The position numbers were made by a program, and so were the translations under genes. From Burkholderiaceae bacterium (GTDB taxonomy: Bacteria; Pseudomonadota; Gammaproteobacteria; Burkholderiales; Burkholderiaceae_C), in assembly GCA_026125795.1 (NCBI GenBank), contig JAHCKM010000002.1, positions 930,001-994,000 of the forward strand: a DNA stretch of 64,000 nt. The letters are read 5' to 3'. Below the pieces are notes generated by a model. It was not told where the DNA came from and made no database searches. It saw only the letters and a program-made list of their open reading frames with translations. Shown in pieces: positions 14,625-18,816 of this stretch (position 1 is its first letter; each line of letters opens with the position of its first letter).

Positions 14625-15857
14625 TCAGGCCGGTGCGGCCACCACCTGCCGCCGCGGCAGCCGCGTGAAGGCCAGCGCCGACAGGAAGGCGCCGATGCCC
14701 AGCGCGAACGCGCCGATGAACAGCCACGCATAGCTGGAGAACGTGTCGTAGATCAGGCCGCCCACCACCGGCCCCAGCGCCATGCCGAGGCTGCTGGCCA
14801 TCGTGGTGCTGCCGATCACCGTGCCCATCATGCGCAGCGGAAAGTTCTCGCGCGCGATCACGGCAAACAGTGGCATCACGCCGGCGTAGGTGAAGCCGAA
14901 CAGCGCCGCCACGGCGTAGAAGCTGCCGAGCTCGCGCGCGCCGACGTACCCCAGCGCCACGATCGCCTGTGCGAGCAGCGCCAGCACCAGCACGCGCGCG
15001 GCGCCGAAACGATCGCCCAGCAGCCCGAACACGAGGCGGCCGCCCATTCCCGCGAGCCCTTCGAGGCTGTAGATCGACACCGCGGCCATCAGCGGGATGC
15101 CGCAGGTGACGGCGTAGCTCACGGTGTGAAAGATCGGCCCGGAGTGCGTGGCGCAACTCAGGAAGCTGGTCAGCACCAGGATCGCGAACGGTGCCGAGCG
15201 CAGCGCCTGGCCGAGCGACAGGGCCGGCTCGTGCGCCGCGCCCGGCGCCGCGGCGGCGGCCGCTTGCGCCAACGCGGGCGGCCGCCGCACCAGCAGCGCC
15301 GCCGGCACCATGATGGCCGCCACCAGCGCCGCGACGATCTGCAGCGAGGTGCGCCAGTCGTTGCCTTGCACCAGCCACGCGGCCAGCGGCGACATCGTCA
15401 TCGGCGCCATGCCCATGCCGGCCGACACCAGCGACACCGCCAGGCTGCGCCGCGTGTCGAACCATCCGGTGACGCACGCCATCATCGGCGCAAAGATCGC
15501 CGCGGCGCTGACGCCCACGACCACGCCGAACCACAGCTGGAAGGCCGCGAGCGATGTGGCCAGGCTGGCCAGCGCGAGGCCGACGGTCAGCAGCACCGAG
15601 CCCGCCAGCACCACGATGCGCGGACCGAACCGGTCGGACAGGTGACCCCAGACGATGCTGCCGAGCGCGAGCGCGATGAACGCGAACGTCATCGCGCTGG
15701 AGATCCCCGTGGTGGACCACCCCGTGTCCTGCGCGATCGGCCGCAGGAACACCGGCAGCGAGAACAGCCCGCCGATCGCCACGCAGCCGAGCAAGCCGCC
15801 GGCGGCCACGATGATCCAACGGTAGTGCGCCTGCAGCGCGTTCGTCCAGGAAGTCAT
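14625..15857 (-). CDS. MFS transporter
   Basis: A 410-residue major facilitator with 12 predicted membrane helices, split by a cytoplasmic loop near residues 185-205. The loop 'GHLSDRFGPRIVVLAG' between helices 2 and 3 is the family motif A, repeated in the second half as 'GLLGDRFGAARVLVLAL'. The pattern is that of the oxalate/formate-antiporter-like or monocarboxylate-type carriers. The start at 15857 has an AAAGGA site; the upstream in-frame ATG at 15872 lacks one. A 9-bp inverted repeat lies about 90 bases upstream. Confidence 0.88.
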   Translation of the reverse strand: MTSWTNALQAHYRWIIVAAGGLLGCVAIGGLFSLPVFLRPIAQDTGWSTTGISSAMTFAFIALALGSIVWGHLSDRFGPRIVVLAGSVLLTVGLALASLATSLAAFQLWFGVVVGVSAAAIFAPMMACVTGWFDTRRSLAVSLVSAGMGMAPMTMSPLAAWLVQGNDWRTSLQIVAALVAAIMVPAALLVRRPPALAQAAAAAAPGAAHEPALSLGQALRSAPFAILVLTSFLSCATHSGPIFHTVSYAVTCGIPLMAAVSIYSLEGLAGMGGRLVFGLLGDRFGAARVLVLALLAQAIVALGYVGARELGSFYAVAALFGFTYAGVMPLFAVIARENFPLRMMGTVIGSTTMASSLGMALGPVVGGLIYDTFSSYAWLFIGAFALGIGAFLSALAFTRLPRRQVVAAPA

Positions 15858-15947
15858 GGCCGGTCCTTTCATCGTCCGTGCTTGTCTGCCGTCAGGCTAA
15901 GTGCGGCCGCGCGACGGCGTGAGTAACAACAGTGGCGGGATTCGTGG

Positions 15948-15972
15948 GTCGTTCGTATCCATGACGAACGAC
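15948..15972. promoter_or_regulatory. Perfect inverted repeat GTCGTTCGT-N7-ACGAACGAC
   Basis: Two 9-bp arms match perfectly around seven bases, about 91 bases upstream of the MFS start and about 120 before the small-RNA promoter. The length and spacing suit a dimeric repressor operator (TetR or MarR type). It could also fold as a stem-loop, but no T-run follows on either strand, so a terminator is less likely. No adjacent regulator gene explains it. The rest of the gap (15858-16092) shows nothing else clear. Confidence 0.4.
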
Positions 15973-16092
15973 GAGCGGCCGGATCGACAAACCGCGCTCG
16001 CCAGGCCGTTGGGTGTGACCGCACGGCACCGATGCATCGTTGAAGCGCCGCGGCGGATGCAATTGCGCCGCGCCCTGGCGCGCGGGCCGCGC

Positions 16093-16122
16093 TGGTCAAG
16101 GCGGCCGGAAAGCGTGTACGCT
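16093..16122 (+). promoter_or_regulatory. Candidate sigma-70 promoter of the small RNA
   Basis: A -35-like TGGTCA (16093-16098) and a -10-like TACGCT (16117-16122) are separated by 18 bases. Initiation would fall near 16129, about 26 bases before the micro-ORF start. The match is moderate but the spacing is good, and the unit downstream is compact and ends in a terminator. Confidence 0.45.
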
Positions 16123-16141
16123 ACAGGCTCCGATCAACTAC

Positions 16142-16154
16142 GAAAGGAGGTGAT
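16142..16154 (+). promoter_or_regulatory. Thirteen-base perfect Shine-Dalgarno
   Basis: GAAAGGAGGTGAT is the exact reverse complement of the bacterial 16S rRNA tail ATCACCTCCTTTC, whereas normal genes in this window match 4-6 bases. Only four bases separate GGAGG from the ATG, shorter than the usual 6-8. Such an over-strong site may hold ribosomes rather than promote efficient escape. Confidence 0.75.
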
Positions 16155-16199
16155 ATGTCTAAGACGTCTAGGTTTGGGGCGGAGCCCTACCTCTTGTAG
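16155..16199 (+). CDS. 14-residue micro-ORF inside the small RNA
   Basis: ATG to TAG encodes MSKTSRFGAEPYLL, directly after the perfect Shine-Dalgarno sequence. The peptide is neither strongly hydrophobic nor Cys-rich, so it does not look like a membrane toxin or a leader for an adjacent operon; no gene follows it on the same strand. Its last codons (TAC CTC TTG) contain ACCTC, which can pair with GAGGT in the Shine-Dalgarno. The ORF may be translated, or its codons may be conserved only because they form RNA structure. Confidence 0.4.
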   Translation: MSKTSRFGAEPYLL

Positions 16200-16218
16200 T
16201 TGGTTCTGTAGCCAGACC

Positions 16219-16253
16219 CGCGGGCGCTCCACACTTCGGTGGGAGCGCCCGCG
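16219..16253. terminator. UUCG-capped hairpin terminator
   Basis: Twelve base pairs (CGCGGGCGCTCC with GGAGCGCCCGCG) are followed, after one bulged A, by three more (CAC/GTG) closing a C(UUCG)G tetraloop, an exceptionally stable cap. On the plus strand a short T-containing run (TCATTTCC) follows. The hairpin abuts the stop codon of the minus-strand cytochrome gene, so it probably serves both transcripts. Confidence 0.75.
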
Positions 16254-16628
16254 TCATTTCCGGGCACGCGCGTGTTGCGTGTCTTGCGCGTGCGGCGCTC
16301 GCGCCGTCGGCTGGGCGAAACGATAGATGCTCTGGTTGAGGTGGCGCGTGACCTCGGCGATGTCGTCTTCGGTCCACGACAGATGGGCTCGGCCCTGCCA
16401 CAGCCGCACCTGCTCCCTGAGGCTGTTCAAGTCGGTGGCGCGGCGTTGGTCGCGCCAATGCACCTGCTTGTCGTGACAGGCGATGCAATGGGTGGTGTAG
16501 AGCAGTTCGCCGCGCGATTGCGCCGATGCGGCTCCCGCCACGACCAACAGCCCGGCGAGCACGCTGCAGGGTCTCACGGCGTGCCGGCCGCCGGCCCGCA
16601 CGATGGTGGCGATCGGGGCTGCCATCAT
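16254..16628 (-). CDS. Small secreted c-type cytochrome
   Basis: A 124-residue protein with a signal peptide ('SVLAGLLVVAGAASAQ' ending near residue 37) and one haem-attachment motif C-I-A-C-H near residue 48. A possible distal Met is not obvious; 'HLNQSIYRF' lies where the sixth-ligand loop would be, so haem coordination may be atypical. Its ATG overlaps the stop of the DUF2314 gene by 4 bases, so the two are translationally coupled. It likely carries electrons in the periplasm; partner unknown. Confidence 0.8.
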   Translation of the reverse strand: MMAAPIATIVRAGGRHAVRPCSVLAGLLVVAGAASAQSRGELLYTTHCIACHDKQVHWRDQRRATDLNSLREQVRLWQGRAHLSWTEDDIAEVTRHLNQSIYRFAQPTARAPHAQDTQHARARK

Positions 16629-17038
16629 GGCTTTGCTCTGGAGGTGAAGTGGCCCATGGTCTTTCCGGTCTTTTCGTCGACGTACTTCCAGTCGGCGACC
16701 TGCGAACGGCCGAACCTGACGATCTCGCCGGCCTTCACGCTGCGCACCAGGCGAGGTTCGTCCTGGATCCTCCCCGTGAACGAGCCATCGGACCAGGTGA
16801 ATTCGTTGACCCAGAAGTACTCGGTGCCGTGGCCGTCCTGGATCTTCACCTTCAGTGCGTAGCCGCTGGTGCCGGCGGGCTGCTGCTTGGCCTTGGTGAG
16901 AAAGTCGTCCAGCGTGGCCTGCGCCAGCTCGCTGTACGGGCTTGTCGCGCCGTCGTTGCGGGCGCGCTCGGTGAGGGGCTGGCTGCAGGCCAGAACCGAA
17001 AGCAGAACCAGCGCGGCGGCGATGCGGTGGTGTTGCAT
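16625..17038 (-). CDS. DUF2314 (YegJ-like) lipoprotein
   Basis: A 137-residue protein with a lipoprotein signal ('LVLLSVLACSQP', lipid-bearing Cys near residue 18). The DUF2314 pattern follows: 'ALKVKIQDGHGTEYFWV', 'SFTGRIQDEPRLV' and 'VADWKYVDEKTGKTMGHFT'. The family has no known biochemical role. It is the first gene of a two-gene unit with the cytochrome and may be anchored in the inner or outer membrane facing the periplasm. Confidence 0.82.
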   Translation of the reverse strand: MQHHRIAAALVLLSVLACSQPLTERARNDGATSPYSELAQATLDDFLTKAKQQPAGTSGYALKVKIQDGHGTEYFWVNEFTWSDGSFTGRIQDEPRLVRSVKAGEIVRFGRSQVADWKYVDEKTGKTMGHFTSRAKP

Positions 17039-17091
17039 GTCAGATATGGCGCTGCATGTCGGACAACCGGATCACCGAGTGGACGCCCTGT

Positions 17092-17499
17092 TCAGGCCTG
17101 CGACCGGCCACCCACCGGCGGACGGTTCTTTCGATAGGAGTTCTTGAGCGCGATCTTGCCGTCTCGAAACGTGAACACATCACAGCCGTGCACTTCCACG
17201 CGGGCACCGTCCACGCGCGTTCCGGTGAAGGTCCACTCCGACACGCCGCGATCGCCGACGACGAAGTGGCGCGCATCGCCCCAATGGGCATCGGGAAAGG
17301 TGGCAAAGACCTCCGCGAATCCGGCGCGGACCGCCTCGCGGCCCTGGTAGCGCGTGCCGCAGACGTCGGGGCCCGCGGACGCTTCGAAGACGCAGCGGTC
17401 GTTCATGAACGACATGAGGGCATCGACATCGTGGCGGTTCCACGCATCGGCGAAGGCTTGCAGCATCTCGATGCTCGCTGCGGCAATGGCGTTGGACAT
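17092..17499 (-). CDS. SnoaL-like/NTF2-fold protein
   Basis: A 135-residue cytoplasmic protein of the SnoaL/DUF4440 group: 'LQAFADAWNRHDVDALMSFM' opens the fold, then 'YQGREAVRAGFAEVFATFPD' and the sheet 'VEVHGCDVFTFRDGKIALK'. This matches the 'nuclear transport factor 2 family' proteins common in soil bacteria. Ligand and reaction unknown. A ribosome site (GGAGAC in reverse sense) precedes the ATG. The 53 bases to the DUF2314 start hold no obvious terminator. Confidence 0.8.
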   Translation of the reverse strand: MSNAIAAASIEMLQAFADAWNRHDVDALMSFMNDRCVFEASAGPDVCGTRYQGREAVRAGFAEVFATFPDAHWGDARHFVVGDRGVSEWTFTGTRVDGARVEVHGCDVFTFRDGKIALKNSYRKNRPPVGGRSQA

Positions 17500-17532
17500 C
17501 CGAGGTCTCCTTTTCGGCGCGCCCGGCCGTGA

Positions 17533-18138
17533 TCATGCCCGGTTGGAAAGCCCTGCGTGATCAGCGCGGCCACTGCGCGGTTCCCACTCACGCCGGAGCA
17601 GCCCGTACACCCAGGTATCCGACACGTCGCCCTCCACGATGCAGTCTTCGCGCAGCATGCCTTCGCGCGCGAACCCAAGCTTTTCCAGCACGCGGCTCGA
17701 AGCCGTGTTGCGTGTGTCGGTCTGGGCGTGGACCCGGTTCAGGTCGAGCGCGTGGAATGCCCATTGCAGCAAGGCGGCAGCGGCCTCGGTGGCAAACCCG
17801 TGGCCCCATGCCGCCTCGTCGAGGCAGTAGCCCAGCGTGGCGCTGCGATAGTCGGGATTCACCTGGACCAGGCAGCACCAGCCGATGAACACGCGGTCGG
17901 CGGCGCGATCGACGGCCAGCCGGACGCCGGCGCCTTCTTGCTCCATTTGCCTGCAGACCGCGATGAAACGATCGGCCCGCGCGCGCTCCTTCCACGGCGG
18001 TGAATCCCAGTAGCGCAACACACGCGGGTTGCTCTGCAACGCGTAGATCGCGTCGGTGTCGGCTGGCGTGAACGGGCGCAACAGCAGGCGGCTGGTGTGC
18101 AGCGTCGGGGCGTGCAAAGGCATCCGCGCAGTGTGCAT
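17533..18138 (-). CDS. GNAT acetyltransferase, RimJ/RimL-like
   Basis: A 201-residue protein of the ribosomal-protein N-acetyltransferase type. 'LHTSRLLLRPFTPADTDAI' opens the domain, 'GYCLDEAAWGHGFATEAAAA' is the acetyl-CoA loop, and 'ASSRVLEKLGFAREGMLRED' is the typical closing helix and strand. Acceptors in this group range from ribosomal proteins to small amines and antibiotics. It starts 6 bases after the DHFR-like gene ends and is probably co-transcribed with it. The ATG at 18123 is an alternative start. Confidence 0.87.
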   Translation of the reverse strand: MHTARMPLHAPTLHTSRLLLRPFTPADTDAIYALQSNPRVLRYWDSPPWKERARADRFIAVCRQMEQEGAGVRLAVDRAADRVFIGWCCLVQVNPDYRSATLGYCLDEAAWGHGFATEAAAALLQWAFHALDLNRVHAQTDTRNTASSRVLEKLGFAREGMLREDCIVEGDVSDTWVYGLLRREWEPRSGRADHAGLSNRA

Positions 18139-18144
18139 CAGGGA

Positions 18145-18816
18145 TCAGCCTGCCTCGCGCGCCAGCCTGGCGCGCCGCTCGAGTTCCTTGGCGCTCGGCT
18201 CGGCGTGCGCGAACGATCCGGCCGGAATGTCCCCGGCCGGCACATAGGTGCTCATGACGACACCGGTGCTCGAGGCTCGTGTTGACGCGAGGCGCAGCAT
18301 GCCGGCCCTGGCGCCGGCCTCGAACAGCCGCTTGCCGCGCCCGATCACCACCGGAAAGGTCCACACGTTGTATTCGTCGATCAGCGTGGAGGCCTGCAGC
18401 GTCTGGATCAGTCTGCCGCTGCCGATGATCTGCAGGTCAAGTCCGGACTCCTGCTTCAGCGCCGCCATGGCTGCGACCACGTCGCCGCGCAGCAGCGTGG
18501 AGTTGTTCCATTGCAGCGGCGCTTTCAGCGTGCGCGAGGCCACGTGCTTGCGTGCCGCGTTGAGCGTGCGCGCGATCGGGCTGTCGGTCGGCTGGTACGG
18601 CCAATACGCCTCGAAGATTTCGTAGGTCAGGCGGCCCAGCACGATCTCGCGGTCCTTGCCGTCGAGGCCGCGCATGTCGCGACTGGAATCGTCGTCCCAG
18701 AAGGGGAACGACCAGCCGCCGAACGCGAAGCCGCCGGTGCGATCTTCTTCGGGGCCGCTGGGCGCCTGCATGACGCCATCGAGCGAGACCATGGTGGTTG
18801 CGATCAGTTTTCTCAT
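18145..18816 (-). CDS. Dihydrofolate reductase-like (RibD C-terminal domain) protein
   Basis: A 223-residue protein beginning 'MRKLIATTMVSLDGVMQAPS', the standard opening of the stand-alone RibD-C/DHFR-like family, with 'IVLGRLTYEIFEAYW' and 'LQIIGSGRLIQTL' further on, the latter forming the NADPH-binding glycine turn. These proteins are presumed reductases; few substrates are known. The sequence after about residue 190 is an Ala/Arg-rich extension. It is first in a unit with the downstream GNAT. Confidence 0.86.
   Translation of the reverse strand: MRKLIATTMVSLDGVMQAPSGPEEDRTGGFAFGGWSFPFWDDDSSRDMRGLDGKDREIVLGRLTYEIFEAYWPYQPTDSPIARTLNAARKHVASRTLKAPLQWNNSTLLRGDVVAAMAALKQESGLDLQIIGSGRLIQTLQASTLIDEYNVWTFPVVIGRGKRLFEAGARAGMLRLASTRASSTGVVMSTYVPAGDIPAGSFAHAEPSAKELERRARLAREAG

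What the first reader, a model, noticed from the sequence alone, without database searches (positions are those of the whole stretch)
16093..16255. Compact small RNA carrying a 13-base perfect Shine-Dalgarno
In 160 bases there is a promoter, GAAAGGAGGTGAT (exact complement of the 16S rRNA tail), a 14-codon ORF, and a UUCG-capped terminator, with no gene downstream on that strand. The unit seems built to bind ribosomes. I recall an Rfam family of betaproteobacterial toxic small RNAs with such a feature and think this is a member; its physiological role is, to my knowledge, unclear.
Basis: partly seen in the sequence, partly recalled or inferred. Interest (0 to 1): 0.75.

Follow-up and report, generated by a model that had tools for sequence, protein, structure and literature searches.

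The report
Small RNA with ribosome-docking mini-gene
This is an unclassified small bacterial RNA gene with an unusually perfect ribosome docking site, a tiny reading frame that ends near the tip of a predicted hairpin, and a terminator-like hairpin; relatives exist in related bacteria, but whether it is made and what it does are unproven.

Summary
In detail: GAAAGGAGGTGAT (16142-16154) is an exact 13-nt complement of this genome's 16S tail, followed directly by a 14-codon ORF and a UUCG-capped hairpin, with no supported same-strand gene behind. The recalled identity is wrong: nothing here matches RF02278, whose model carries an anti-SD-like stretch, the opposite polarity; the genome has a genuine RF02278 copy elsewhere. 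I found 19 copies of an RNA family with no Rfam 15 match at this site: 17 of 399 sampled genomes of the bacterial family, plus two named contigs. Order (399) and class (369) samples gave only the window's copy. The layout is fixed: SD, 4 nt (6 in one), start codon, a conserved GGT at +17 that opens a covarying hairpin arm, then the terminator stem. The in-frame stop lies within 6.5 nt of a predicted hairpin apex in 18 of 19; the peptide is not conserved. The full-length minimum-energy fold shows that hairpin from +17 in only 12 of 19, not in the window's copy. Compared flanks are unrelated. Best reading: a stand-alone, attenuator-like RNA in which translation, not the peptide, sets the fold; a ribosome trap is the main rival. 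Expression and function are untested.

The parts
16117..16122 (+). probable -10 box TACGCT; the -35 is unclear
   Evidence: TA(C/A)(G/C)CT in 18 of 19 copies, partly by construction; no conserved -35 hexamer
16128..16131 (+). CUCC that can pair with the GGAG of the SD
   Evidence: helix 1, 90.8% of cells paired; SD closure at or beyond the 5% tail of shuffles in only 4 of 19 copies
16142..16154 (+). extended Shine-Dalgarno GAAAGGAGGTGAT, 13-nt complement of the 16S tail
16155..16199 (+). mini-ORF of 14 codons plus stop (MSKTSRFGAEPYLL)
16171..16218 (+). hairpin P2: 5' arm inside the ORF, apex at the stop codon, 3' arm untranslated; opening GGT at +17 of the start codon
   Evidence: covariation; GGT spacing in 19 of 19; stop near apex; P2 from +17 is in the full-length minimum-energy fold of 12 of 19 copies, not of this one
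16219..16259 (+). UUCG-capped terminator-like hairpin and short U-rich tail

Best explanation
A roughly 130-nt autonomous RNA of a family not in Rfam 15. SHOWN by sequence: a near-perfect 16S complement placed 4 nt from a start codon; a conserved GGT at exactly +17 that opens the 5' arm of a covarying hairpin (P2), which is about where the leading edge of an initiating ribosome should lie (toeprint distance, recalled); an in-frame stop near the hairpin apex; a terminator-like stem directly after; no conserved peptide; no supported same-strand gene behind. INFERRED: 30S subunits are captured very efficiently, a ribosome runs 12-15 codons into the 5' arm of P2, melts it and terminates at its apex. 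So the RNA has alternative states that depend on ribosome passage, and would act as a free-standing version of an amino-acid-operon attenuator leader, responding to translation capacity, with the released RNA (its free 3' arm, or its stability) as the output in trans.
For: Fixed geometry: GGT at +17 and GACC abutting the terminator stem in 19 of 19 copies; SD-to-start gap 4 nt in 18, 6 nt in L023. In-frame stop within 6.5 nt of a predicted apex centre in 18 of 19, against 3 and 5 of 19 for the other two frames; in L024 and L029 this is the loop of an extra inserted hairpin. P2 covaries: 6 of 19 pairs with two-sided changes on the model-fitted alignment of 19 and 6 of 19 on a MAFFT alignment of 16 (6 of 500 shuffles reach that). 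Peptide not conserved: in the six most similar copies 4/5/6 variable columns at codon positions 1/2/3 and 49 nonsynonymous against 22 synonymous pairwise codon differences; SRFGAEP in one group, SWSERDL in another. SD pairing -18.7 to -22.6 kcal/mol in all 19.
Against: No transcript or ribosome-profiling evidence. P2 opening at +17 is in the full-length minimum-energy fold of only 12 of 19; the window's copy, L034, L016, L024, L029 and L030 fold otherwise and L021 uses a duplicated GGT. In P2 one pair fails in 11 of 19 sequences and the count of pair types does not exceed shuffles (264 and 459 of 500); RNAalifold on its own kept only part of P2. No run of regulatory codons, no same-strand downstream gene, no established antiterminator. 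No trans target was sought. Copies are related, so counts are not independent. SD closure: 0.15 unpaired against 0.27 in shuffles on average, but only 4 of 19 copies at or beyond the 5% tail, and L020 and L029 are more open than most of their shuffles. In L024 and L029 the complement shrinks to 11 nt although the 16S tails of their genomes read CCTCCTTTCT.
Confidence: 0.38

Rival explanations
1. Ribosome trap: the extended SD holds 30S/70S complexes at the start codon and the hairpin at +17 slows their advance, so the RNA lowers the pool of free subunits (growth brake, dormancy or toxin-like).
For: Exceptional SD strength and the hairpin arm beginning at the ribosome's leading edge in 19 of 19.
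Against: One copy per genome is unlikely to titrate thousands of ribosomes unless extremely abundant (inference); the stop near the apex suggests that ribosomes pass the start; a pure trap needs no placed stop.
Confidence: 0.2
2. Dual-function RNA or mini-mRNA: the short peptide is the product.
For: A start codon with strong SD and an in-frame stop in 19 of 19; L018 has a 3-nt longer ORF in frame.
Against: No sign of purifying selection on the peptide, radical peptide changes between groups.
Confidence: 0.12
3. Ordinary trans-acting sRNA whose GGAGG-containing region pairs with CU-rich RNAs; the ORF is incidental.
For: Structured orphan unit ending in a terminator-like hairpin.
Against: The frame-specific stop and fixed +17 spacing are unexplained; no long U tail as in Hfq-type sRNAs.
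Confidence: 0.14
4. Small non-autonomous mobile element (terminator-linked cassette) whose RNA features serve its own spread.
For: One match per genome at E<=0.01 in the 17 genomes but no shared flanking proteins beyond one 31% pair; G400 keeps the MFS neighbour with another gene beside it and has its RNA on another contig; in genus g170 a blastn search with L025 hits the RNA in 2 of 21 genomes, in different surroundings, while G794, and G617 at a contig edge, keep the L025 neighbour gene without it.
Against: No multi-copy expansion; by eye the RNA sequence types group by genus (no tree was built); no match in viral contigs with two patterns and only weak local hits in plasmids and phages. Transposases and target-site duplications were not searched for.
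Confidence: 0.13
5. Member of Betaproteobacteria toxic small RNA RF02278.
Against: No RF02278 match at E<=5; opposite polarity of the key motif.
Confidence: 0.01

Closest known systems
Amino-acid-operon attenuator leaders and their released sRNA (Sinorhizobium rnTrpL/peTrpL; passages of PMC7298713 seen)
   Same: A short leader ORF of 14 aa and a terminator, with terminated RNA and peptide both reported to act in trans. Coding region in one arm, stop in the loop and terminator next is the E. coli trpL layout (recalled).
   Different: No same-strand operon downstream, no regulatory codon run, peptide not conserved, extended SD (the 5' end of rnTrpL is its ATG), unrelated genomic positions.
Betaproteobacteria toxic small RNA RF02278
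   Same: Small, hairpin plus terminator, Burkholderiales; both concern the SD/anti-SD system.
   Different: RF02278 carries an anti-SD-like strand (CUCCUCCACC), its model is 64 positions, and it does not score at this site.
30S-associated sRNAs with overlooked small ORFs (RyeG of E. coli, OsiS of Pseudomonas; passages of PMC8545117 seen)
   Same: Annotated as small RNA yet expected with 30S because of a small ORF.
   Different: No sequence relation was tested; those ORFs are proposed to make proteins.
Extended SD:anti-SD initiation sites of Staphylococcus aureus (passages of PMC13009471, abstract included, seen)
   Same: Start-proximal extended pairing with the 16S tail.
   Different: There a general property of mRNAs; here one orphan unit in a genome whose 46 scored gene starts use much weaker pairing.

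Membership tests
RF02278 Betaproteobacteria_toxic_sRNA | covariance-model score at or above 50 bits | tested here: not met
   no match at gathering nor at E<=5; positive control: own-genome copy on contig C5, 64.3 bits
RF02278 Betaproteobacteria_toxic_sRNA | CU-rich anti-SD-like 5' stretch | tested here: not met
   model consensus UGUCUCCUCCACC; here an SD, GAAAGGAGGUGAU
RF02278 Betaproteobacteria_toxic_sRNA | growth inhibition in E. coli | not testable with these tools
   needs experiment
Translation-coupled transcription attenuator | leader ORF in the 5' arm, stop near the hairpin apex, terminator next | tested here: met
   stop within 6.5 nt of an apex centre in 18 of 19; adjacency of arm and terminator stem 19 of 19; but P2 from +17 in the full-length minimum-energy fold in 12 of 19 only
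Translation-coupled transcription attenuator | same-strand regulated gene downstream | tested here: not met
   16 of the 18 copies with downstream sequence have a convergent gene with a Pfam match over its cut-off, at 12 to about 610 nt; L014 (under cut-off) and L024 (no family) have a convergent ORF without such support. The four same-strand or plus-strand ORFs tested have no Pfam match: window 16239, L022, L023, L025. L029 ends inside the terminator.
Translation-coupled transcription attenuator | mutually exclusive alternative structure | tested here: inconclusive
   in the own copy, L034 and L016 a long SD:ORF-end helix replaces P2 in the minimum-energy fold; not seen in most other copies
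Translation-coupled transcription attenuator | run of regulatory codons | tested here: not met
   19 peptides listed
Dual-function (peptide-coding) sRNA | conserved peptide | tested here: not met
Dual-function (peptide-coding) sRNA | ORF translated | not testable with these tools
   needs ribosome profiling or toeprint

The most novel reading that the evidence does not exclude
A free-standing, position-wandering RNA that gauges translation-initiation capacity: a 13-nt 16S complement captures a 30S, a hairpin at the ribosome's leading edge and a stop at its apex make the fold depend on ribosome passage, and the RNA reports in trans instead of controlling a gene in cis. That would be an attenuator without an operon.
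Probability: 0.27. Interest if true: 0.78.

Novelty: new variant of a known kind. Interest (0 to 1): 0.5.

Why it matters
If the reading holds, a tiny RNA responds to ribosome loading without serving a downstream gene, for which I know no clear precedent (recalled, not an exhaustive search), and its roughly 130-nt size makes it directly testable in vitro. At minimum it is an RNA family that Rfam 15 does not recognise at this site, with covariation and a fixed ribosome-scale geometry, in Burkholderiales, several of them metagenome-assembled (record titles).

Tried and rejected
RF02278 membership: rejected. Other weak Rfam hits near the site (Burkholderiales-2 17.9 bits against a cut-off of 67.9, ALIL, Ms1, CC2171): all far below cut-off, rejected. 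L031/G714: a partial match of 28 bits inside a sulfate-permease coding region, dropped as false. Plasmids and phages: only short local hits at E 0.1-0.5. Viral contigs: none with two patterns. The bare 16-mer GAAAGGAGGTGATATG occurs only in the own genome among 399 of the order. Model R2 found only the own copy in the order sample (1 of 399; 387 of these are of other families) and in the class sample (1 of 369); these searches used stricter filters that lose weak matches. Co-evolution of the SD's 5' end with the 16S tail: not supported; the tails found in 8 of 16 genomes all read CCTCCTTTCT, including the two whose SD departs. An exact empty site was not obtained: in G400 the order differs by a rearrangement, with a 2.2-kb stretch (RNA and four genes) missing between the MFS and RibD_C orthologues, and a 58-nt piece of the intergenic region lying behind RibD_C.

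Full report
What is there. The window holds, on the plus strand, a compact unit between two minus-strand genes, an MFS transporter (14625-15872) and a small cytochrome-like protein (16254-16628; Pfam hit of 20.7 bits, under its cut-off of 27). A plus-strand ORF of 207 aa (16239-16862) overlapping the minus-strand genes has no Pfam match and I take it as spurious. The unit comprises a -10-like TACGCT (16117-16122), an extended SD GAAAGGAGGTGAT (16142-16154), ATG 16155, 14 codons, TAG 16197-16199, and a GC-rich hairpin with a UUCG loop (16219-16253). The 16S gene of the same genome ends ...GGATCACCTCCTTTCT, so the 13 bases are its exact complement. The genome has two exact copies of the 13-mer, this one and the 16S tail read on the other strand, and three with one mismatch. 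The predicted duplex, -22 kcal/mol, compares with a best of -13.0 and a median of -7.55 among 46 credible gene starts of the window, scored generously. The RNA folds 5.4 standard deviations better than shuffles.

What it is not. No Rfam family reaches its cut-off in the window, and a permissive scan of the site gives only low scores. Its consensus begins UGUCUCCUCCACC, an anti-SD-like stretch. Burkholderia cenocepacia copies are described as CU-rich double hairpins of unknown function (passages of PMC4603805 and PMC5688073). The recalled feature was therefore of the wrong polarity.

The family. blastn finds the element in 5 of the 6 held genomes of the genus, own included. A covariance model from those 5 copies finds 18 of 399 genomes of the bacterial family at E<=0.01. 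I dropped one (L031/G714, 28 bits, inside a sulfate-permease gene), leaving 17 genomes in 8 genera, one match each at that threshold. Two further copies came from named contigs (L034, a Piscinibacter MAG; L036, a Proteobacteria MAG); the other four rows are contigs already counted. That makes 19 distinct copies. In the order and class samples only the own copy was found (1 of 399; 1 of 369), under filters that lose weak matches.

Conserved architecture. In 19 of 19 copies a GGT that opens the 5' arm of hairpin P2 stands at +17 counted from the start codon, and the GACC that closes it abuts the terminator stem (L029's contig ends inside that stem). The SD-to-start gap is 4 nt in 18 copies and 6 in L023, which starts with GTG. 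Fourteen of 19 carry GAAAGGAGGTGA(T/C) followed directly by ATG; L021 and L027 have one A-to-G change that can still pair; L023 differs after GGTG; L024 and L029 keep 11 matching bases. P2 covaries: 6 of 19 pairs show two-sided changes both on the model-fitted alignment of 19 and on a MAFFT alignment of 16 (L021, L024 and L029 left out for large insertions or truncation), where 6 of 500 shuffles reach that count. Against this, the number of pair types does not exceed shuffles, one P2 pair fails in 11 of 19 sequences, RNAalifold alone keeps only part of P2 on the MAFFT alignment, and the full-length minimum-energy fold contains P2 from +17 in 12 of 19 copies only. L021 uses a second GGT from an internal duplication, and L014 (the window's copy), L034, L016, L024, L029 and L030 fold otherwise.

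Reading frame. The in-frame stop falls within 6.5 nt of a predicted apex centre (fold of the P2 region alone) in 18 of 19; L030 is the exception. The other two frames do so in 3 and 5 of 19. In seven copies (L014, L015, L034, L036, L017, L018, L020) the stop lies just 3' of the loop, in the closing helix, not in the loop proper. In L024 and L029 an extra hairpin is inserted and the stop lies in its loop. By contrast the peptide changes freely: in the six most similar copies 4/5/6 columns vary at codon positions 1/2/3, with 49 nonsynonymous and 22 synonymous pairwise codon differences; two smaller groups give 29 against 5 and 5 against 3. I conclude that the act of translation, and where it ends, is more likely under selection than the peptide. 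The copies are related, so these are not independent counts.

Position. Within the DNA held (mostly 1.5 kb each side), ORFs of the different copies match each other only across the element itself, apart from one pair at 31% identity (L020 and L021, both beside DctM transporter genes). G400 has the orthologous MFS gene with a different neighbour and its RNA on another contig. In genus g170 the L025 blastn search hits the RNA in 2 of 21 genomes, in different surroundings. G794 keeps the gene that adjoins L025's RNA without an RNA beside it, and G617 keeps the end of that gene, at a contig edge, without one. By eye RNA sequence types follow genera; I built no tree. The gene therefore wanders or is repeatedly lost and regained. 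Of the 18 copies with downstream sequence, 16 have a convergent gene with a Pfam match over its cut-off, at 12 to about 610 nt; L014 and L024 have convergent ORFs without such support. In L022 an unsupported same-strand ORF lies between. In L025 the convergent thioredoxin-like frame runs on across the RNA.

Mechanism. Shown: 16S complementarity, fixed geometry, covariation, stop placement, lack of peptide conservation. Inferred: efficient 30S capture, melting of P2 by the ribosome, termination at the apex, and a ribosome-dependent fold whose output is in trans. This resembles an attenuator leader cut loose from its operon (rnTrpL is the nearest known parallel; passages of PMC7298713). The chief rival is a ribosome trap: the same SD with a hairpin at the leading edge. 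SD closure in the free RNA is predicted in 18 of 19 copies (unpaired 0.31 or less; L029 0.70), but only 4 of 19 reach the 5% tail of shuffles and L020 and L029 are more open than most of theirs (mean 0.15 against 0.27), so I do not rest the case on it. The 5' end of the SD does not follow the 16S tail in the two departing genomes.

Verdict. A real, unclassified RNA family with an attenuator-like design and no operon. Function and even expression remain to be shown.

Noticed in passing
G000 contig C5:158314-158375 (L008) and C2:794043-794105 (L012): Genuine RF02278 toxic sRNA (64.3 bits) and a weak second one (33 bits, under cut-off) in the same genome, outside this element.
   Followed up: partly
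window 15941-18148: A 2.2-kb stretch (RNA, cytochrome-like, DUF2314, SnoaL-like and GNAT genes) is absent between the MFS and RibD_C orthologues in G400, where pieces of it lie elsewhere.
   Followed up: partly
L021:1432-1611: A tandem duplication (unit of 32 nt by the GGT offset) inside the mini-ORF shifts the frame, yet the new frame still ends with a stop at the P2 apex.
   Followed up: partly
L024:1501-1678 and L029:1501-1659: Variant subfamily with an extra hairpin inserted in P2; the stop codon has moved to the loop of that new hairpin.
   Followed up: partly
window 16219-16253: The terminator stem keeps its sequence (GCGGGCGC) more strictly than a plain terminator should need, unlike P2; unexplained.
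   Followed up: no
window 16254-16256: The stop codon of the convergent cytochrome-like ORF lies directly at the foot of the terminator stem.
   Followed up: no
L020 and L021: Two copies of one genus both lie beside DctM transporter genes that are only 31% identical.
   Followed up: no
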